Shown here: positions 19-15,103 of the stretch, in pieces | How positions within the stretch are numbered: position 1 is the stretch's first letter | How the letters are laid out: the number at the start of each line of letters is the position of its first letter | Source of the DNA: a virus | DNA: 24,214 nt | IMG/VR virus record: IMGVR_UViG_3300046477_000228 | Span: 1 to 24,214 of that record | Strand: one strand, 5' to 3' | Notes under the pieces: model-generated | Databases searched by the model: none | What the model saw: only the letters and a program-made list of their open reading frames with translations | What the model was told of the DNA's origin: nothing | Program-made: the position numbers and the translations under genes

Positions 19-648
19 ATGAAACAAGCCATCATCTTGGGTGGCGGCGCAAAGGCGCGCTGCTTTGATTTCCAGTTGGCGGAGGATGATGACGTTGAGA
101 TTTGGGGCATCAATTTTTCGGTGAAGGATTGGGTGCCGCGCTACGACCGTATGTTCAATGTTCATCGTTACACGCTACTCAAGAAATACGGCTACCCCTG
201 CTGGCGCGATGCGGTCTGGGCGTTGGAGCATCCTAAAACTCGTATCGTCCTGGCCGACGACTGGCCGGATAAGCGCATGGCTCACGCCGAGATATTTCCA
301 CGCGCTCAATTGCAGGCGAAATATCCGCGTGGCGAATATCACTGCAATAGCTGCGATTGGCTGATTACTCTTGCTCTTTACGAGGGCTTCGGGGCGGTGC
401 ATCTGCACGGCTTCGCCCTTGAGCGCGAGGGCATGATGGAGCAGACGAGCGCCGCCAAGTGCGCGGAGTATTGGGTCGGGTACGCCGAGGGTTTAGGCAT
501 GAAGGTGCATGTCGGCGAGGACAGCGCCATGTTTGGCGTCTACCATCTGACAAAGACGAATCGGGTGTATGGCTATGATGACAGCCCTGCCTACGAAGAT
601 CGCACGTCGGAAGGTAAAGACCCGCCGTATCGCTATGACGACTATTGA
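19..648 (+). CDS. Rossmann-like, possibly glycosyltransferase-type phage protein (first of two paralogues)
   Basis: This 209-aa protein starts at ATG 19 behind a strong AGAGGAGG site. Residues 5-31 look like the first beta strand, glycine-rich loop (ILGGG, 6-10) and second strand (EIWGIN) of a Rossmann fold. Similar openings occur in DUF115/MptE-like proteins and GT42-type sialyltransferases, where the loop binds a nucleotide or nucleotide-sugar. It is a paralogue of the protein at 7562-8539: both carry an (I/V)FPR-x-x-L-x-A block at residue 92, a mid-protein helix-strand ending in GF or GVD, and a C-terminal YGY motif. No signal peptide or membrane segment is visible. The tail after residue 185 is acidic and Tyr-rich. 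It lies just upstream of the prohead protease gene. A role in modifying a virion or host glycan is inference only; the exact family is not recognised with certainty. Confidence 0.6.
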   Translation: MKQAIILGGGAKARCFDFQLAEDDDVEIWGINFSVKDWVPRYDRMFNVHRYTLLKKYGYPCWRDAVWALEHPKTRIVLADDWPDKRMAHAEIFPRAQLQAKYPRGEYHCNSCDWLITLALYEGFGAVHLHGFALEREGMMEQTSAAKCAEYWVGYAEGLGMKVHVGEDSAMFGVYHLTKTNRVYGYDDSPAYEDRTSEGKDPPYRYDDY

Positions 649-971: not shown

Positions 972-2684
972 ATGCCGATCAGGTTTATTGAAGCCGTCGA
1001 GCATGTGGGGGATAGGGCCGTCAGCGATGAGGCATTGGTAAAATATCTGCGCGAGCACGCACCCAATCTCGCTGATATGGTCGAGAGAGAATTAGGCAAA
1101 AACTTTAGCGTTGGCGATGTACATGTCGCATCCGCTGGCGGCGATGACGATAAGGACGAAAAGAAGAAAAAGAAAAAGCCCGAACCGCCCATCAGCGTTG
1201 CGTATGAGTTCGATCACCGAATGAAGGTGGACCGGGACCGGGAGGCGGCGGAAGTCGCGAAGCTCGGCCCGCTAGGGTCGCCGCGTATACTCGGCAGTGA
1301 TGGCTTCGATCCGAACACCGCGACCTTCGATACCCACGGCAGTTCCAACGAAGCCTTTGATTGGTGGGTTCAACAGGTCAAGGCGGCGGAAGCCGATCAA
1401 GTCAACAAGCTCAAGCTGAAGCAGAAGACCTCGCTTGAAGCCACGCCGAACGAACTCAAGGCGCTTACCGAGGCGTTAAACAGTAACCCGTTATTGCGCA
1501 GCGCATTGCAGCAGGCGTTGGCGGCGTCGATTGGCAAGGCGGCTGATCGTACCATTACTGTTATCCGTCACGGCGCAACGCATCTAAACAACAAGGACAC
1601 ATCGGTTGATCGCGTTCGCGGTTGGACAAACGTTCCGCTTTCGCAGGAAGGGCGCGACGAAGCGCAAAAGCTGGCCGACAAGATGGCGAAAGAGCCGCCC
1701 GATCATTTGGTGACGTCCGACCTCAATCGCGCGCACGAAACGGCGAAAATGATCGCCAAGGCTACCGGCAAAAAGATTGATGATGTTAGCGAGGGCTTCC
1801 GGCCGTGGAACGTTGGCGAGTACGCAGGCAAGACCTCGAAGGAAGCGGTGCCGATCCTGTGCCGCTATGCAATAGAGAAGCCCGATGAGAAAATTCCAGG
1901 CGGCGAAAGCTTCAACGATTTTCGAGGCCGATTCTTCAAAGCACTTGCGGGCGCTGTTGCTAAGTTTTCTGGTCGCTTAGCGGTCGTTACCCATCACCGA
2001 GGCGAGCGATTGCTTAGTGCATGGCAAGCGGCGGGCTTCCCGGCAGACGGGACCATTGACGGGAAGGAGTTTTCCAAGAAGGGCGAGGGAACGGCCGGGT
2101 ATGAGGACTTAGAGATACCACCTGACCGCCTGGACGCCGCAGCGCAGGCGACAGTAACCAAGTGGATTAACCCGCCAGAGGACTTCAACAAGATTTGGGA
2201 GGGCGGTGACGATATTCCAGAGGCAGACGAAGATTGGTTCAAGAGAGCAAAGCTTGTCTTGCCGCCAGCGCCAATTGAAAAGACCATGACCTTCAACATC
2301 GCGAAGGTTGATGACGAGCAGCAAATTTTCTACGGTTGGGCTTACGTCAGCGAGGAGAACGGCAGCATTATCGTAGACAAACAGGATGATTATATTCTGC
2401 CGGAAGATTTGCTTTCGGCTGCGGAAGACTTCACGCTGCAGGGCGGCAAGCTAGGCGACATGCACGACAAGCGAAACGTGGGCAGAGTAGTTGCGTCGTT
2501 TGTAACAACGGAGGCGTTATGCAAGACGTTCGGTATCAGTATGGCCGACGAAAGACGCGGGTGGATTCTCGGCTTCAAAGTAGACAACCCGGAAGTGTGG
2601 AAGAAGATCAAGGACGGGGAGCAACTAGAGTTAAGCATAGGCGGCAAGGGCGAGCGCGTCGAAGTAGAATTGACAGTAGTATAG
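972..2684 (+). CDS. Histidine phosphatase domain fused to XkdF-like prohead protease
   Basis: This 570-aa protein starts at ATG 972 behind GGGAGAGGG. Residues 1-190 are charged and partly low-complexity, with a Lys run near 63-70. Residues 195-400 form a histidine-phosphatase (phosphoglycerate-mutase-like) domain: RHG at 199-201 with catalytic His200, then a LSQEGRDEAQ helix, an SDLNRAHETA block with the conserved Arg, a Glu in EGFRPWNVGEYAG, and the second catalytic His at 341 (VVTHHRGE). All expected active-site residues are present. From Met439 the sequence matches the XkdF / peptidase S78_2 type of phage prohead protease: YGWAYV, a VDKQDD segment, MHD with His498, and LSIGG with Ser555. 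The protease call fits the position upstream of the scaffold and capsid genes. XkdF proteins are usually stand-alone and shorter. The fused phosphatase is unexplained; a capsid-internal enzyme released during maturation is one hypothesis. Confidence 0.8.
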   Translation: MPIRFIEAVEHVGDRAVSDEALVKYLREHAPNLADMVERELGKNFSVGDVHVASAGGDDDKDEKKKKKKPEPPISVAYEFDHRMKVDRDREAAEVAKLGPLGSPRILGSDGFDPNTATFDTHGSSNEAFDWWVQQVKAAEADQVNKLKLKQKTSLEATPNELKALTEALNSNPLLRSALQQALAASIGKAADRTITVIRHGATHLNNKDTSVDRVRGWTNVPLSQEGRDEAQKLADKMAKEPPDHLVTSDLNRAHETAKMIAKATGKKIDDVSEGFRPWNVGEYAGKTSKEAVPILCRYAIEKPDEKIPGGESFNDFRGRFFKALAGAVAKFSGRLAVVTHHRGERLLSAWQAAGFPADGTIDGKEFSKKGEGTAGYEDLEIPPDRLDAAAQATVTKWINPPEDFNKIWEGGDDIPEADEDWFKRAKLVLPPAPIEKTMTFNIAKVDDEQQIFYGWAYVSEENGSIIVDKQDDYILPEDLLSAAEDFTLQGGKLGDMHDKRNVGRVVASFVTTEALCKTFGISMADERRGWILGFKVDNPEVWKKIKDGEQLELSIGGKGERVEVELTVV

Positions 2685-3399: not shown

Positions 3400-3476
3400 T
3401 GCGCGGTGGAGCAGCCCGGTAGCTCGCTTGGCTCATAACCAAGAGGTCGGCGGTTCAAATCCGCCCTGCGCAACCA
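3400..3476 (+). tRNA. tRNA-Met (CAU), initiator-like, CCA encoded
   Basis: A complete 77-nt cloverleaf can be folded by hand. The acceptor stem 3400-3406 pairs with 3466-3472 (seven pairs, one G-U), with discriminator A3473 and encoded CCA 3474-3476. The D stem GAGC/GCTC is 3409-3412 with 3422-3425. The anticodon stem CTTGG/CCAAG is 3427-3431 with 3439-3443, with loop CTCATAA and anticodon CAT at 3434-3436. The T stem GGCGG/CCGCC is 3449-3453 with 3461-3465, with loop TTCAAAT. Initiator traits are the A11-U24 pair, the D loop AGCCCGGTA and the A-rich T loop. Two traits differ: base 1 is T and pairs with A72 instead of a C1xA72 mismatch, and only two of the three G-C pairs at the base of the anticodon stem remain. 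A stand-alone initiator or a hybrid elongator are both possible. Confidence 0.93.
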
Positions 3477-3664: not shown

Positions 3665-3919
3665 TTATAGACGAAGGTAGTCAATTACGACTGGACTGAT
3701 GCTGTAATAAACGCGTGGCGCTCTAAAGTCAGATTCGCCTACGTAACGTTCCGCCTCACGAATTAAGATTTCCGCGTCTGTGAGTCGCTTCAGTGTCGAA
3801 GCGATTACGGATGGCGATAATCCGCACCCGTTCTGAATCTCAGTAAACCAATGTTTCTCGACGGTACTGCCTATTATGAAGGTGAGTATCGTGCGCGAGC
3901 TTTGATCCCATAAAAACAT
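3665..3919 (-). CDS. Winged-helix DNA-binding regulator (PadR/MarR-like, small)
   Basis: This 84-aa protein is the only convincing minus-strand gene. Residues 23-50 read as a helix-turn-helix: a first helix (HWFTEIQNGCG), a turn LSPS, and a recognition helix VIASTLKRLTDAEIL. A wing follows with a basic RAPRVYYSIS strand at 67-75. The spacing from GLSPS through SxLKRLxxAxxL to PRxYYxIS is typical of PadR- and other winged-helix regulators. Its start overlaps the region before the scaffold gene, so it could act on the capsid operon or on itself, but no operator is evident. The start codon lacks a clear Shine-Dalgarno site. It is convergent with the 53-aa gene upstream. Target and ligand are unknown. 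Confidence 0.6.
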   Translation of the reverse strand: MFLWDQSSRTILTFIIGSTVEKHWFTEIQNGCGLSPSVIASTLKRLTDAEILIREAERYVGESDFRAPRVYYSISPVVIDYLRL

Positions 3920-3986
3920 GACGAATCATAGTGTCGCTAGGGGCTTAGCGCAATTGTCTTTATTTTTGAGAATTGGGCGGGAACCA

Positions 3987-4934
3987 ATGCCGCGACAACT
4001 AAAGAACCTTCGAATCGATGAAGTCAGTTCGGTTGATCGGGGCGCGGGCAAGGGTGTTCGGGTTCTGCTCATGAAGCGAGATGAACTTGCAGGCTCTGAC
4101 GGTAAGCGAGAAATACACGCGCTCAAGGCGCTTGAGCTTGCTCTTACTTCCATCATTGGCACTGGCGATACCAACGCCGCGTCTGTCGAAAAGACGGTCG
4201 AGTGCTTCAAACAATTCCACGCCTTCCTAAACGACGACTCTAAGGAGAAAACCATGCCGCTCGATGTCAGCAAGGAAGACCTTGAAACCCTCATCAAAGG
4301 CGTCGTCGCGGGCGCGCTCAAGGAAGCCGGTGTCGTCAAGGAAGATGTCGATAAGAAGAAAGACCCAAAGCCGGTGGCTGATGACAACGAGCCGGATGAA
4401 GACGACGCAGCCAAGATGCTAGACAAAATGTTTGGCGAAGGCAGCGCGAAAAAGATTGCTGAGCTTATGAACAAAAAGGCACCAATCGAGCCGGTTCAGA
4501 AATCAGAAGAACTCGCCAAGCGCGATGCGGAGATTGTTGATCTGCGCAAGCACGTTCACGATCTAACCGAACGCCAAGCGCGTGAGGATTTTGCCAAGCG
4601 CGCTACCTCTCTCGGACTGGTCAAGGAAGACGGCGAGAAGCTTCGCAAGGCTTATGCAGGCGATGTCGCCGCGCTCGGCTGGATGGAAGAAACCATTCGC
4701 AAGCTGCAAACGCAGGTCGAGAAGGCCGGTCTGTTCAACGAGATTGGCGACAATCGCGGCGGCGCAGCCAATATCACTGCGCACGACGAATTGCTCGCCA
4801 AGGCGAAGGAAATCCAAAAAGCCGATCCTAAGCTCACGGAGGCTTCGGCCTACGTTCGAGCGATGGAGGTCTACCCGGAAATCGCTAAGCGCGAGTCTCA
4901 GGAGCGATTGGCTAAGGTGCAGAAGCTGGCCTAA
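3987..4934 (+). CDS. Capsid scaffold-like protein (long form)
   Basis: The chosen start is ATG 3987, preceded by GGGCGGGA. An in-frame ATG at 3918 adds 23 residues but lacks a ribosome site and collides with the minus-strand gene. The 315-aa product opens with LKNLRIDEVSSVDRGAGKG followed by VLLMKR, an opening seen in proteins encoded between XkdF-type proteases and capsid genes. The rest is charged and mainly helical: an acidic Asp/Lys/Pro linker around residues 115-140, then a coiled-coil-like segment (KRDAEIVDLRKHVHDLTERQ) and a helical C-terminus. Composition, length and position between protease and major capsid protein fit an internal scaffold cleaved during head maturation. An internal start at 4254 would give a shorter form. 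Function is inferred from position and composition, not from a catalytic motif. Confidence 0.65.
   Translation: MPRQLKNLRIDEVSSVDRGAGKGVRVLLMKRDELAGSDGKREIHALKALELALTSIIGTGDTNAASVEKTVECFKQFHAFLNDDSKEKTMPLDVSKEDLETLIKGVVAGALKEAGVVKEDVDKKKDPKPVADDNEPDEDDAAKMLDKMFGEGSAKKIAELMNKKAPIEPVQKSEELAKRDAEIVDLRKHVHDLTERQAREDFAKRATSLGLVKEDGEKLRKAYAGDVAALGWMEETIRKLQTQVEKAGLFNEIGDNRGGAANITAHDELLAKAKEIQKADPKLTEASAYVRAMEVYPEIAKRESQERLAKVQKLA
4241..4247 (+). promoter_or_regulatory. Strong internal Shine-Dalgarno for a nested in-frame scaffold start
   Basis: TAAGGAG lies six bases before an in-frame ATG at 4254, well inside the scaffold gene. It is a better ribosome site than the one used for the full-length start at 3987. 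Initiation here would give a 226-aa protein beginning MPLDVSKEDLETL, lacking the N-terminal domain. Phage lambda uses the same arrangement (scaffold Nu3 nested in gene C). That the site is used here is inference. Confidence 0.55.
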
Positions 4935-5493: not shown

Positions 5494-6501
5494 GTGCCCC
5501 AACCGACTCTTCAAGACGTTCACGTACAGGCAGCCCTTACGAACGTCGCGGTGGCCTACTTCCAAAGCGAGGACAATTACGTCGCGGACAAAGTGTTCCC
5601 GATGGTGGGTGTCCAATTCCAGGCGAACAAGTATTTCGTTTGGCAAAAGGCGGACTTCTACCGCGACGAAGCGCAGCTTCGAGCAGACGGTGCCGAGAGC
5701 GCAGGTTCCGGCGTCAGCTTGAAGACGCAGAGTTACGCGGCTGAAGTTTGGGGTCTCCATCAAGATGTCGGCCCACAAGTTCGCGCCAACGCCGACCCGG
5801 CAGTTGATGTCGATGTGACGGTTACGCGCGTTCTGATGCAAAAGCTTCTCATCCGGCGCGACCGCTTCTTCATGACCCAGTATATGAAAACTGGCGTCTG
5901 GGGCACGGACGCAACCGGAACAGCAAGCACTAGCGGCGGATCACCCGCAACGACCACTCCGGTGTTCTGGGACGACGATGCGAACGGCGATCCCTTTACC
6001 GACATTGCTTTTGGTCAAACCACGATCCTGCAAAATACCGGCTACATGCCGAACAAACTCACGATTTCGTGGAACGTGTATCAAGCGCTCCGCAAACACC
6101 CTCTGATTGTTGATCGTATTAAATATACGATGGCGACTTACGCAGGCACGATCACGCCGCAATTGCTCGCGCAGGCTTTCGACATCGCGGCCATCGTAGT
6201 GTCAAAAGCCGTCTACAACACCGCGTCGGAAAACGTCACCGCGTCGATGAGCTTCGTCGCCGGTAAGAACGCGCTGCTTACCTATTCGCCGCCAGCACCG
6301 GGCCTAATGGTCCCGTCAGCAGGCTACACGTTTGGTTGGACCGGCTTCACCGGACTCAACAGTCTCGGCATTCGCATCTCGCAAATCCCGATGAACTGGC
6401 TCGGCATGGGCTTGGTCAGGATCGAGGGCGAGATGGCGTTTGACATGCAGGTGGTGTCATCCGACCTCGGCTTCTTCTACAGCGCCATCACGCAGGTCTA
6501 A
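5494..6501 (+). CDS. Major capsid protein (HK97-fold type)
   Basis: The 335-aa product starts at GTG 5494 after a near-perfect AGGAGG at 5483-5488. Its layout fits a phage major capsid protein without a long N-terminal delta domain. A helix-and-loop opening includes VADKVFPMV. An extended E-loop-like region covers KYFVWQKADFYRDEAQLRAD. The P-domain helix TVTRVLMQKLLIRRDRFFM follows. The A-domain stretch PNKLTISWNVYQALRKHP is typical of capsid proteins that test well positions for dimer contacts. Then come IVVSKAVYNTA and GKNALLTYSPPAPGLMVPSA. The final strands (VVSSDLGFFYSAITQV) are also typical. Position after the scaffold and decoration genes and the strong ribosome site both suit the most abundant virion protein. 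Confidence 0.88.
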   Translation: MPQPTLQDVHVQAALTNVAVAYFQSEDNYVADKVFPMVGVQFQANKYFVWQKADFYRDEAQLRADGAESAGSGVSLKTQSYAAEVWGLHQDVGPQVRANADPAVDVDVTVTRVLMQKLLIRRDRFFMTQYMKTGVWGTDATGTASTSGGSPATTTPVFWDDDANGDPFTDIAFGQTTILQNTGYMPNKLTISWNVYQALRKHPLIVDRIKYTMATYAGTITPQLLAQAFDIAAIVVSKAVYNTASENVTASMSFVAGKNALLTYSPPAPGLMVPSAGYTFGWTGFTGLNSLGIRISQIPMNWLGMGLVRIEGEMAFDMQVVSSDLGFFYSAITQV

Positions 6502-7561: not shown

Positions 7562-8539
7562 ATGGGTGACAAAGTTGCGATCCTCGGCACGGTGCCAAAC
7601 TCTCGGTGCATGGCTCCCTACGACGACCCGTCATGGGACATTTGGTGTTGCTCTGGCGGCAACAGCCAACAGGCCGCGCCACCGCGTATAAACGAGTGGT
7701 ACGAGATTCATTCGATTGTTGATCTGCACGCGCCAGAAAATAAGGGCTGGTATCCGCCCTACGTTGCGTGGCTCAACGCGCAAAAGTTTCCTGTTTGGAT
7801 GCAAGAAAAGAACGACGACATTCCGCGCGCATCAGTATTTCCGCGCCGCGAGTTAATGGCGCGATTCGGTCCCACAAAGACAAAAACTAATTGGTTCACC
7901 TCGACCCCGGCTTGGATGTTCGCGCACGCCATTGTGCGCGGCTACACGACCATAGGAATCTTCGGCGTCGATATGGCGGCGGCAGAGGAACATTATACCG
8001 GACAGAAGGCTGGCTTGCTGCGCTGGTTTGAAATCGGGCGTGAACTCGGAATCAACGTAGTCGTGCCACTGGAGTCTTCGCTGGCGTTTCACTATCCGCT
8101 ATACGGCTACGCCGAATCCTCGCGCATGGGCAGACATTTGCTCGTTCGTGAAACCGAAACGAAAGCGCAGATTGCTCACTGGCAGAACCAAGAGATGCAG
8201 ATCAAGCAGAGGATTTTCGCGCTATCCGGTACGCTTGAGCAGTTGACCTTTGATCGGCGCACGTTTGTCTCAGGCATAGACGACGCCGACATTAGCGATG
8301 AGGAAATGCGTTTCACCGCGCGGCTGCCGGTATCGAGCGACCCGCCAGAAGTCGCACAACCCACGCAGATGACTTCGCCGTCTGCGCAGGCGGTGTCGCT
8401 CACATCGACTGGTTCGCTGCAAATATTAAACAATAGCTCGCGCACGCCTACCGCTGCGGACTTCGCCGACAATCCTGACGCCGCTCTATTGATGCCGCGC
8501 AACAAGGCGAACGGGCCAATGCCAAAGGAGCAGGAGTAA
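7562..8539 (+). CDS. Rossmann-like, possibly glycosyltransferase-type phage protein (second paralogue, extended)
   Basis: This 325-aa protein starts at ATG 7562 with AGGAGG seven bases upstream. Residues 5-185 repeat the layout of the protein at 19-648: a first strand with ILGT, a WDIWCC second strand, a Trp/His-rich segment, VFPRRELMARF at 92-102, a helix leading to IGIFGVDMA at 131-139, and HYPLYGY near 177-183. The fold resembles DUF115/MptE-like and GT42-like nucleotide-sugar proteins. Unlike its partner it carries a C-terminal extension: a coiled-coil-like helix (about 195-240, with IAHWQNQEMQIKQRIF), then a Pro/Ser/Thr-rich disordered tail to residue 325. The extension could anchor the domain to another protein or to the virion. 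The enzyme role is inference; no catalytic residue can be pinned. Confidence 0.6.
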   Translation: MGDKVAILGTVPNSRCMAPYDDPSWDIWCCSGGNSQQAAPPRINEWYEIHSIVDLHAPENKGWYPPYVAWLNAQKFPVWMQEKNDDIPRASVFPRRELMARFGPTKTKTNWFTSTPAWMFAHAIVRGYTTIGIFGVDMAAAEEHYTGQKAGLLRWFEIGRELGINVVVPLESSLAFHYPLYGYAESSRMGRHLLVRETETKAQIAHWQNQEMQIKQRIFALSGTLEQLTFDRRTFVSGIDDADISDEEMRFTARLPVSSDPPEVAQPTQMTSPSAQAVSLTSTGSLQILNNSSRTPTAADFADNPDAALLMPRNKANGPMPKEQE

Positions 8540-12256: not shown

Positions 12257-15103
12257 ATGACCAGCATTTTAACGATGCTGTATCGAACTCCCGTCGCGCC
12301 GTTGCGTGCGCGGCAGCTTCTTTATTACAGCAACGTCGATGTCAGCCAGCCTCCAATCACTGCGTTCACAATCTCGCTCGGCACCGGCACGTACAGCGTT
12401 GCGAGCGAATCCGAAACACTGAAGAAGACATCGCTTGTTAATACGCAGGCGGGAACCTACGCGCTTACGCCGGATGGTTTGCTTAATATCAACAAAGGAT
12501 CGAAGGCATCGCTTCTCGCTGGCACGTATTCATTTGTGCCTGATGCACAGCTTAACGTAACTAAAACATGGCTCAATAAAGCACAGGCAGGCGTCTACTC
12601 GCTCAACGGTCAGAACGCGGTGCTCAAAAAGACCAGCGTGCAAAATATTCAGGAGGGTTCCTACGCACTCACTCCCGATGCGCTGCTAAACATCAATCAT
12701 GGCTACAAGGTTTCGATCTTCGCTGGCAATTATACTGTCACCGGCGAGAACGCGACATTCAAAAAGACCTCGATCCAGACTGCGCAAGCAGGCGTCTATT
12801 CGCTGACTGGCGAACAAGAAAGACTGCTCAAGGCAAGCTCGAAGAAAATACAAGAGGGCGCGTACACGCTCGCTGGCGAGAACGCGACACTTATCAAAAC
12901 GAATTCGCTCAAGGTGCAAACGGGATCATACTCGGTTGCGGGCGAGCAAATTCTGCTGCGCAAGACCAGCGTCCTCAATATTCAAGAAGTGCCGTATGCG
13001 CTGACTGTCGAGTCAATTACGCTAAGTAATATTGTCGCGTTTACGATGAGTATTGGCACCGGCACGTACACGCTCACTCCCGAAAATCTAACGCTGATTA
13101 AAACGTCAAAGGCTGGTCTTCAGGTCGGCACGTACAGCCTTACCGACGAACAACTGACGTTGTTGAAGAAATCCAAGCTGCAAAGCACGACCGGCACCTA
13201 TGTACTGACCGGCGAACAACTGACATTGAAGGCTGGTCGCACGACGAAGCCGCAGGCTGGTTTTTATAATCTTACCGGCGAGAACGCGGCGCTAAAGAAA
13301 ACGAATCTGCTCAACATGCAGGCCGGGTTCTATGCGCTTACCGGCGAGTCGATTGCCTTTACGTTCTCTGGTGCTGGCGCTTTCGCCATGAACATCGGTA
13401 CGGGTGTCTATCTGTTGACAGACGAAACGGTGACGCTGCGCAAAACGTTCAACCTTAATTTGCAGGAAGGCAAGTATCTAAAGGACGGCTTCTCCGGTGG
13501 CCGAGATTTCAACGGCTCCACGGATTCCATTCAGACCGCAGGATCATCAACAACTTTTAACCCCGCACCATTCACGATGTTGGCGTGGATATATCCGACT
13601 GTGAGTTCCGGTTCGTCAGTGATGGGCTACGGTGGCACTGACGCAACAACAACTCATCAGCTTTATTTAAGTCAATCGCCGGGGCCGCATTTCCGTGCGA
13701 ACTTTCATATCAACGGAGAGGCCGAAATCGGCTCGCCGTCTTCGATCATTGCGTTTCAATGGACGCCTATCGTAATAACTCTAGCTAGCGACGGTGTTAC
13801 CATAAGCATCTATCTCAACGGGGTGTTGGACGTAACTGGTACGCTATCGTCGCCGTATATCCCGGCAGCTACGCCATTTTTTGTCGGCCTCGATAGCGTT
13901 GCTAATGCTGACTTCTTCAAGGGCGGCGTTACTGAAGTGGCATTGTGGAATACGGTTTTAACCGGGACTCAGATCACTAATCTTGCGGCTGGTCGTCGTG
14001 CAAACACGATAGGTGCTAACGCAAACTTGGCTCTCTATTGGCCGATACTTGAACAGTCTCCCGAACCAGACAAATCGGGCGGCGGCAATGACGGCACGGT
14101 TGCTGGAACGACCGTCACGGCTGGTCCTCCGCAATTGGACCCGTACAATCCAGTCGGATACGAAACGCTGCTTAAGGGTTCGCAACAGAAACAGCAGTCC
14201 GGTTCCTATGCCGTCACCGGCGAGAACGAGAGATTGTTAAGGAAGGCGCTCGAAAATAATCAAACTGGTTTCTACGCACTCACTGGTGAGAACGAAGCAT
14301 TAAAGATAGGGCGCAAGCAATCTGTGTCGGAAGGTTTGTATGCTCTGACTGGCGAGAACGCGCGGCTGTTGCTTGGTAGATTCGATGCTCTGCAATCCGG
14401 CTTCTATACGCTTGTTGGCGAAAATCAGGGACAGAGAGCGACCCGCCTAAGCGCAAACTCTACCGGATTCTACAATCTCACCGTTGAATCAATCACGCTA
14501 ACATTTTCTGGAACGAACGCATTTAGCATTTCATTGGGGACCGGCACATACTCGCTAACCGATGAGAATTTAACGCTGACGAAGACCTCGAAAGCGGGAC
14601 TTCAGGTCGGCGTCTACAGCCTCACAGACAACCAGCTAAGTCTGCTCAAGACCTCCAAGCTATCGAACACTACCGGCGTTTATACGCTCACCGACAACGC
14701 GCTGACGCTCAGCACTAAGCGTTTGATGAAAGCGCAGACTGGCTTCTACAGCGACACGGTCAACGCCCTGATGACTAGCTTTGGTCATGCGATTGCCCCG
14801 CAAACAGGGTTCTATAATTTCACAAGTGCGCTGTCGTTTCGAAGGAAGGCGTTGTTTGCCACAGCCACCGGCTTTTATACCGTCAGCCGTAACGGGCTAA
14901 ATCTCGTTTTTTCTGCGGCGGCAACGGCGGCAATTATCTCCTCGCCTACCTTGCTTGGCTCCGATGTCGGCATCACGCTTTCCGGCAGCGAAGCCTCTAG
15001 AACCTTGCTCGGAACAGACGTGGGCAGTACCATCACCGGAGGCGATTCCGCACCGACGCTTCTTGGTGACGACGAAGTGCCTGGAATTAAGGGGTCCGTC
15101 TAA
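12257..15103 (+). CDS. Giant repeat protein with embedded LamG-like domain
   Basis: This 948-aa protein starts at ATG 12257, two bases after the previous stop. Residues 44-404 hold 16 copies, and residues 649-888 about 11 copies, of a 22-residue repeat with consensus G-x-Y-x-L-T-(G/D)-E-(N/Q)-x2-L-x-K-x-S-x4-Q-x. Between them, residues 411-630 form a LamG/concanavalin-like domain (GFSGGRDFNGSTDSIQT, FTMLAWIYPT, VGLDSVAN, FKGGVTEVALWNTVLTGTQI, LALYWPILEQ), a fold that commonly binds sugars. The C-terminus ends in three copies of an about 18-residue LLG-(S/T/D)-D-V-G repeat. The N-terminus (MTSILTMLYRTPVAPLRAR) could be an attachment peptide. It is likely a surface fibre carrying a carbohydrate-binding head. 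Repeats of this look are, to my recollection, seen in other phage proteins but have no well-described fold. Confidence 0.75.
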   Translation: MTSILTMLYRTPVAPLRARQLLYYSNVDVSQPPITAFTISLGTGTYSVASESETLKKTSLVNTQAGTYALTPDGLLNINKGSKASLLAGTYSFVPDAQLNVTKTWLNKAQAGVYSLNGQNAVLKKTSVQNIQEGSYALTPDALLNINHGYKVSIFAGNYTVTGENATFKKTSIQTAQAGVYSLTGEQERLLKASSKKIQEGAYTLAGENATLIKTNSLKVQTGSYSVAGEQILLRKTSVLNIQEVPYALTVESITLSNIVAFTMSIGTGTYTLTPENLTLIKTSKAGLQVGTYSLTDEQLTLLKKSKLQSTTGTYVLTGEQLTLKAGRTTKPQAGFYNLTGENAALKKTNLLNMQAGFYALTGESIAFTFSGAGAFAMNIGTGVYLLTDETVTLRKTFNLNLQEGKYLKDGFSGGRDFNGSTDSIQTAGSSTTFNPAPFTMLAWIYPTVSSGSSVMGYGGTDATTTHQLYLSQSPGPHFRANFHINGEAEIGSPSSIIAFQWTPIVITLASDGVTISIYLNGVLDVTGTLSSPYIPAATPFFVGLDSVANADFFKGGVTEVALWNTVLTGTQITNLAAGRRANTIGANANLALYWPILEQSPEPDKSGGGNDGTVAGTTVTAGPPQLDPYNPVGYETLLKGSQQKQQSGSYAVTGENERLLRKALENNQTGFYALTGENEALKIGRKQSVSEGLYALTGENARLLLGRFDALQSGFYTLVGENQGQRATRLSANSTGFYNLTVESITLTFSGTNAFSISLGTGTYSLTDENLTLTKTSKAGLQVGVYSLTDNQLSLLKTSKLSNTTGVYTLTDNALTLSTKRLMKAQTGFYSDTVNALMTSFGHAIAPQTGFYNFTSALSFRRKALFATATGFYTVSRNGLNLVFSAAATAAIISSPTLLGSDVGITLSGSEASRTLLGTDVGSTITGGDSAPTLLGDDEVPGIKGSV
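12386..13468 (+). repeat. First 22-residue tandem repeat array (about 16 copies)
   Basis: Sixteen successive 66-base units, with a few 12-base expansions, encode the G-x-Y-x-L-T-G-E-N repeat. The protein pattern is regular while the DNA copies have diverged, so the array is old and under protein-level selection. One unit has lost its lead Gly (VPYALT). Confidence 0.85.
14201..14920 (+). repeat. Second 22-residue tandem repeat array (about 11 copies)
   Basis: Eleven further units of the same repeat follow the LamG-like domain. The middle copies resemble units of the first array more closely than their own neighbours (see the block containing KTSKAGLQVG), which points to block duplication within the gene. 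The last units are degenerate (GFYNFTSALSF, GFYTVSRNGL). Confidence 0.8.
14941..15100 (+). repeat. C-terminal three-copy LLG-D repeat
   Basis: Three short units of about 18 residues each begin with TLLG(S/T/D)D and alternate with Gly/Ser/Thr-rich linkers (TLLGSDVGITLSG, TLLGTDVGSTITGG, TLLGDDEVPGIKG). The acidic, Gly-rich look could bind Ca2+ or form a terminal beta element; neither is shown by the sequence. Confidence 0.6.

What the first reader, a model, noticed from the sequence alone, without database searches (positions are those of the whole stretch)
972..2684. Complete histidine-phosphatase domain fused to a prohead protease
The protein combines an intact phosphoglycerate-mutase-like active site (RHG with His200, an SDLNRA Arg block, a Glu, and His341) with an XkdF-like protease domain at 439-570 (His498, Ser555). 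Prohead proteases act inside the growing capsid and cleave themselves and their substrates, so the phosphatase could be released into the capsid and ejected as a cargo enzyme, or could act on a phosphorylated capsid or nucleotide substrate during assembly. I know of no described role for such a fusion. The two halves and their residues are seen in the sequence; the cargo idea is inference.
Basis: partly seen in the sequence, partly recalled or inferred. Interest (0 to 1): 0.78.

Follow-up and report, generated by a model that had tools for sequence, protein, structure and literature searches.

The report
Phosphatase riding on phage capsid protease
In an uncultured bacterial virus a phosphatase-like enzyme is built into the protein-cutting enzyme that matures the virus shell, behind a short stretch resembling the start of the shell protein; in a sister virus the same slot holds a known enzyme that disarms bacterial immunity, so this may be a way of loading enzymes into the virus head.

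Summary
One uninterrupted 570-aa frame (972-2684) holds a branch-1 histidine phosphatase (HP) domain and an XkdF/S78_2 prohead protease. HP-XkdF single frames recur in at least four other phages, and the joined HPs are not one clade (p-AU 5e-8). One correction: the active site is not intact. R199, H200, R253 and H341 are present, but the canonical acid Glu is P278. In this phage HP clade that position is Pro/Thr/Ser/Ala in 52 of 53 members, against Glu in 13 of 13 comparison HPs. The HP also sits on portal C-termini, beside head genes and in polyvalent proteins.

(1) In 29 of 31 XkdF proteins of this capsid family a ~14-aa motif (GDVHxxxALGN) before the protease resembles the major capsid protein N-terminus (DVHVAAALTN); a profile from one finds the other (AUC 0.99). 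The HP lies between motif and protease; phages without HP usually have a short spacer there. (2) In a sister phage the slot holds the anti-CBASS enzyme Acb1, which elsewhere is fused to portals, as HP is.

Best reading: a modular head-borne effector, possibly injected. Packaging, substrate and activity are untested.

The parts
972..2684 (+). HP-XkdF fusion protein, 570 aa
   Evidence: One open frame; two Pfam domains
972..1151 (+). N-terminal module, aa 1-60: helices (aa 3-41 in the model) then the capsid-like motif
   Evidence: AF2 helices; similar 'YLR(E/D)HAP(N/E)LA...GDVH' in L132 and related in L156
1104..1151 (+). Capsid-like motif FSVGDVHVASAGGDDD (aa 45-60), followed by a K-rich run; predicted disordered
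1542..2171 (+). Histidine phosphatase domain, aa 191-400 (Pfam core 195-346); pocket R199, H200, R253, H341; acid position is P278
2172..2294 (+). Linker aa 401-441, mostly predicted disordered (411-442); candidate processing region (inferred)
2295..2663 (+). XkdF/Peptidase_S78_2 prohead protease domain aa 442-564, H498 and S555
3918..4934 (+). Putative scaffold gene (inferred from position; relative in L043)
   Evidence: phrog_17741, function unknown
5494..6501 (+). Major capsid protein (phrog_1005)
   Evidence: E 6e-77
5503..5550 (+). Capsid protein N-terminal segment PTLQDVHVQAALTNVA (aa 4-19), the segment that the XkdF-protein motif resembles

Best explanation
The gene makes a three-part head protein: an N-terminal capsid-like tag (short helices plus a GDVHV motif resembling the capsid protein's own N-terminus), an inserted effector (here a histidine-phosphatase-fold domain), and the XkdF prohead protease. 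Shown by comparison: the parts, their order, recurrence of the fusion, and exchange of the middle part between phages (HP, Acb1, ParB-like, ChaB, or only a spacer). Inferred: tag and/or protease bring the protein into the procapsid; proteolysis frees the HP; it is packaged and enters the next host with the DNA; there it acts early on a phosphate compound, most likely in counter-defence or host takeover, as T4 Alt does after packaging by a capsid targeting sequence. Because the usual acid Glu is replaced, likely substrates have a good leaving group (phosphohistidine, acyl phosphate, pyrophosphate or nucleotide), or another residue supplies the proton.
For: Recurrence: HP and XkdF in one frame in the window, L043, L057, L086/L133, L087/L088/L135, L134, L136, with the joined HPs rejected as one clade (p-AU 4.7e-8). 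Head association: same HP clade on portal C-termini (L042, L053, L054, L061), as a free gene among terminase/portal/capsid genes, and in polyvalent proteins with LPD38 and Zeta toxin or ART-PolyVal. Capsid-like motif in 29/31 XkdF proteins against 66/1158 background ORFs; profile trained on XkdF motifs finds capsid N-termini, AUC 0.986; HP always between motif and protease. Slot exchange: Acb1 (E 2.6e-32) in L150 with the same motif and protease; Acb1 has HP's three placements: portal C-terminus, free gene by the portal, XkdF protein; the Acb1-bearing Pam3 portal is a solved structural protein (8hds). Precedent: T4 capsid targeting sequence and Alt (PMC9026906).
Against: No experiment and no cultured phage with this HP fusion. 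The canonical proton donor is missing, so activity is unproven; in L057 the RHG motif itself is degenerate (SHA). The motif may be a protease site rather than a tag. For the window alone the pairwise motif match is not significant (p 0.45); the case rests on the family. Matching D/non-D states of the two motifs trace to one event on the capsid tree.
Confidence: 0.5

Rival explanations
1. The HP works in the producing cell, either on a head component during assembly or against a host immune signal raised there, and is not delivered to a new host.
For: Fusion to an assembly protease puts it in the assembling head. A prohead protease (phage Bas13) is reported to interact with a CBASS sensor (PMC12409349), so an immune-signal enzyme joined to the protease (Acb1 in L150) could act on the spot.
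Against: The same HP clade occurs in large polyvalent proteins, a class thought to be delivered on invasion (PMC5512222), and on portal C-termini; no phosphorylated head substrate is known to me.
Confidence: 0.25
2. The domain is no longer a phosphatase: with the acid Glu replaced by Pro/Thr/Ser it is a phosphate- or nucleic-acid-binding module with a structural role.
For: Acid position changed in 52 of 53 phage members; RHG lost or not aligned in several giant proteins and degenerate in L057.
Against: R253 and E312 are invariant (53/53), H341 is 52/53, and RHG is kept in the closer relatives, which is unexpected if catalysis is lost. Donor residues vary across HP families (PMC12051542).
Confidence: 0.17
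3. The capsid-like motif is not a tag but a shared cleavage or recognition site of the XkdF protease, in the capsid protein and in itself; the HP then stays attached to the protease.
For: Found in the protease's own protein and its likely substrate; disordered in the model. Compatible with a head-borne HP.
Against: It sits at residues 8-11 of the capsid protein, where cleavage would remove very little; many XkdF proteins of other capsid families lack it.
Confidence: 0.35
4. Assembly artefact or chance read-through joining two genes.
For: Metagenomic contig; the second contig stops at aa 378, before the protease.
Against: The same two domains are in one frame on independent contigs from other samples, one phage in two assemblies (L087/L088, one residue different).
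Confidence: 0.01

Closest known systems
XkdF / Peptidase_S78_2 phage protease (PF14550)
   Same: Domain, His/Ser positions and gene place between MuF-like and scaffold/capsid genes
   Different: Carries a capsid-like N-terminal motif and an inserted HP
Histidine phosphatase superfamily branch 1 (PF00300; PhoE, CobC, glucosyl-3-phosphoglycerate phosphatase)
   Same: Fold and R-H-R-H pocket
   Different: Canonical acid Glu replaced by Pro (RPW motif); head-protein fusions
Phage polyvalent proteins (Iyer et al. 2017, PMC5512222)
   Same: Effector domains mixed on head-associated phage proteins; the same HP clade occurs inside such proteins
   Different: The carrier here is the prohead protease; neither a phosphatase nor XkdF is mentioned in the main text of that paper
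T4 internal proteins and Alt with capsid targeting sequence cleaved by gp21
   Same: Works-like comparison: short N-terminal segment, prohead protease, delivered enzyme
   Different: No sequence relation claimed; here the segment resembles the capsid protein and the cargo is fused to the protease itself
Acb1 fused to portals (Pam3, Rhizobium, Pseudomonas and Synechococcus phages)
   Same: Same set of carriers: portal C-terminus, free gene by the portal, XkdF protein
   Different: Different enzyme fold and chemistry (2H phosphoesterase)

Membership tests
Histidine phosphatase superfamily, branch 1 | HP fold and profile match | tested here: met
   Pfam 1.8e-29; AF2 plus Foldseek
Histidine phosphatase superfamily, branch 1 | RHG nucleophile with R-H-R-H phosphate pocket | tested here: met
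   R199, H200, R253, H341
Histidine phosphatase superfamily, branch 1 | Acid Glu at the PhoE E83 position (usual, donors vary by family) | tested here: not met
   P278; P/T/S/A in 52 of 53 relatives
Histidine phosphatase superfamily, branch 1 | Phosphatase or mutase activity | not testable with these tools
   Needs an assay
XkdF / S78_2 prohead protease | Profile match with His and Ser | tested here: met
   Pfam 1.4e-16, H498, S555
XkdF / S78_2 prohead protease | Place in the head operon before scaffold and capsid genes | tested here: met
XkdF / S78_2 prohead protease | Proteolysis of head proteins | not testable with these tools
   Needs virion proteomics
Polyvalent proteins | Several effector domains on one phage protein near head genes | tested here: inconclusive
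   Window: one effector plus the protease. Relatives L134 and L087 carry HP, ParB-like and ChaB
Polyvalent proteins | Present in the virion and delivered into the host | not testable with these tools
   Inference only
Capsid targeting sequence of the T4 type (works-like) | Short N-terminal segment needed for head incorporation and cleaved | not testable with these tools
   A motif is present; its function is untested

The most novel reading that the evidence does not exclude
XkdF-type prohead proteases of this capsid family are a general loading dock: a peptide imitating the capsid protein's N-terminal arm takes the protease into the procapsid, and exchangeable enzymes inserted behind it (HP, Acb1, ParB-like, ChaB) are packaged and injected as early anti-defence effectors. 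The HP clade would then be a new class of counter-defence phosphatase with a changed active site.
Probability: 0.33. Interest if true: 0.9.

Novelty: new variant of a known kind. Interest (0 to 1): 0.74.

Why it matters
If true, the prohead protease is a carrier as well as a maturation enzyme, and a simple signature (capsid-like motif, insert, XkdF) would let one read candidate head-borne effectors straight from phage genomes. It names a phage phosphatase clade with a changed catalytic position whose substrate may be an immune or regulatory phosphate compound, and it makes testable how phages without a T4-like core might load enzymes into their heads.

Tried and rejected
XkdF alignment A4 was too diverse for a scan; a single L043 query was used instead. 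The matching D/non-D states of capsid and XkdF motifs looked strong (Fisher 1e-6) but come down to one event on the capsid tree, so they were dropped as evidence. The genome-contig scan gave one further clade member (L173, an uncultured bin) and otherwise ordinary Bacillota HPs, so no host was learned. A PDB search for the capsid protein gave only 3bjq and nothing on N-terminal processing. PADLOC found nothing. A scan for more Acb1-XkdF frames found only L150 itself. No paper in the library held XkdF with histidine phosphatase, or phosphoglycerate mutase with prohead protease; histidine phosphatase with portal protein gave two papers whose titles do not concern such a fusion. Assembly artefact and a single origin of the fusion were rejected.

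Full report
What is there. The window is a 24.2-kb IMG/VR virus record. ORF 972-2684 encodes 570 aa. Pfam finds His_Phos_1 at 195-346 (1.8e-29) and Peptidase_S78_2/XkdF at 442-564 (1.4e-16). Downstream are a scaffold-like gene (3918-4934) and the major capsid protein (5494-6501, phrog_1005, 6e-77). A second contig, identical over aa 1-378, shows a portal end and a MuF-like gene upstream. AlphaFold2 with 32 rows gives the HP at pLDDT mostly 90-98, the protease mostly 80-88, and disorder at 43-84 and 411-442. Foldseek against the PDB returns HP enzymes.

The active site. By alignment with PhoE, R199, H200, R253 and H341 form the pocket; the acid Glu aligns with P278 in FRPWNVG. Over 53 distinct phage relatives that position is P 39, T 6, S 4, A 3, E 1, against Glu in 13 of 13 comparison HPs (Bacillota genomes and cell-like phage-collection contigs); R253 and E312 are 53/53 and H341 52/53. 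The phage HPs separate from the comparison HPs with support 100/99, though the comparison set is small and was found by similarity. Donor residues are said to vary across families (PMC12051542).

Where the HP goes. A scan with the window HP and its first relative found 66 viral contigs. Single-frame HP-XkdF proteins: L043 (686 aa), L057 (855 aa) and, from XkdF and capsid scans, L086/L133 (873 aa), L087/L088/L135 (1029 aa or a cut copy), L134 (1180 aa), L136 (1047 aa). L134 holds ParB_N, HP, ChaB and XkdF. Forcing the XkdF-joined HPs into one clade is rejected, p-AU 4.7e-8: the window's HP belongs with solo HPs of other phages (L020, 63% identical), L043/L086 lie elsewhere, L057 elsewhere again. 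The same clade is found on the C-termini of SU10-type, Mu-type and Phage_portal proteins (L042, L053, L054, L061), as a free gene among terminase, portal and capsid genes (L022, L030, L040), and inside polyvalent proteins with LPD38 and Zeta toxin (L017/L018) or ART-PolyVal (L027). In L074 the HP is on a 1038-aa frame with a 2H phosphoesterase, overlapping the start of the XkdF frame. In 42 HP contigs searched, XkdF is present only in three, where it is fused or adjacent; the HP follows head proteins rather than XkdF as such.

A capsid-like motif. The window protein has GDVHVASAGG from aa 48 and the capsid protein has QDVHVQAALTN from aa 7; a DNA pattern for DVHV occurs only at these two places in the window. 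In contigs with related capsid genes (46), 29 of 31 XkdF proteins (window included) carry such a motif before the protease, against 66 of 1158 background ORFs. A profile trained only on the XkdF motifs ranks capsid proteins, at their N-termini, above 1187 other ORFs with AUC 0.986. In many relatives without HP the frame's first Met lies shortly before the motif (for example L149, L152, L155), so the motif is near the N-terminus, as in the capsid protein. In all 6 HP cases tabulated the order is motif, HP, protease; the distance from motif to protease is 395-751 aa with HP, and 34-336 (median 98) without. On the capsid tree HP+ and HP- phages interleave. Cautions: the pairwise match for the window alone is not significant; the matching D/non-D state is a single event; many XkdF proteins of other capsid families lack the motif.

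What else fills the slot. L150, same capsid family, has motif, ParB-like segment, Acb1 (PF23474, 2.6e-32) and XkdF. Acb1 degrades CBASS cyclic oligonucleotides (PMC10419184). In cultured phages Acb1 lies on the portal C-terminus (for example Rhizobium RHph_I72 and Synechococcus Ssp-JY39, both HxT motifs present; most of 35 matching records are annotated there as portal or head protein) or as a free gene between portal and minor capsid protein (Yong-M3-232). The Pam3 portal, with the Acb1 segment in its sequence, is a deposited structure (8hds). HP and Acb1 thus share three placements. Other XkdF proteins carry ParB-like or ChaB segments or hydrophobic Gly/Ala stretches.

Mechanism. Shown by comparison: parts, order, recurrence, exchange. 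Inferred: targeting by the motif and/or the protease, cleavage, packaging, delivery, early action on a phosphate compound. The T4 capsid targeting sequence and Alt are the functional precedent (PMC9026906). Action in the producing cell stays open, notably because a prohead protease is reported to interact with a CBASS sensor (PMC12409349).

Novelty. Effectors on head proteins are a known kind of thing (polyvalent proteins, T4 internal proteins). New here, as far as the held library shows, are the HP clade with the changed acid position, the prohead protease as carrier, and the capsid-like motif.

Noticed in passing
L182 2687-4525; L183 2618-4468; 35 records of the phages collection: Anti-CBASS Acb1 domain on the C-terminus of portal proteins of cultured phages (Rhizobium, Pseudomonas, Synechococcus, Pseudanabaena Pam3; PDB 8hds), most annotated simply as portal or head protein.
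   Followed up: partly
L150 1881-3398: Acb1 fused to an XkdF prohead protease with the capsid-like motif; no second example found.
   Followed up: partly
L094, L095, L099, L109, L111, L113 (XkdF frames): XkdF proteins with long hydrophobic Gly/Ala-rich N-terminal segments sharing GLQVANIAGDAVANRVLAR; possibly membrane-active cargo.
   Followed up: no
L022, L028, L043, L057, L065, L086, L155, L156; MuF-like gene of L002: A small CxxC...C...C segment (like YHCKDCSMFLQPDSCTLVMGKINADGWCKHY) recurs in HP, XkdF and MuF-like proteins of these phages.
   Followed up: no
window 3400-3476: A tRNA-Met (CAT) gene lies inside the head operon, between the protease and scaffold genes.
   Followed up: no
window 19-648 and 7562-8539: Two weakly similar proteins (25% identity, E 9e-6) flank the head genes; no Pfam or PHROG match.
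   Followed up: no
window 12257-15103: 948-aa protein with many diverged repeats of the GxYxLTxENxxLxKTS type; not detected as DNA tandem repeats.
   Followed up: no
L101-L107 (XkdF frames): XkdF joined to a long C-terminal part in one frame, with a DVHV motif and K-run near the C-terminus instead of the N-terminus.
   Followed up: no
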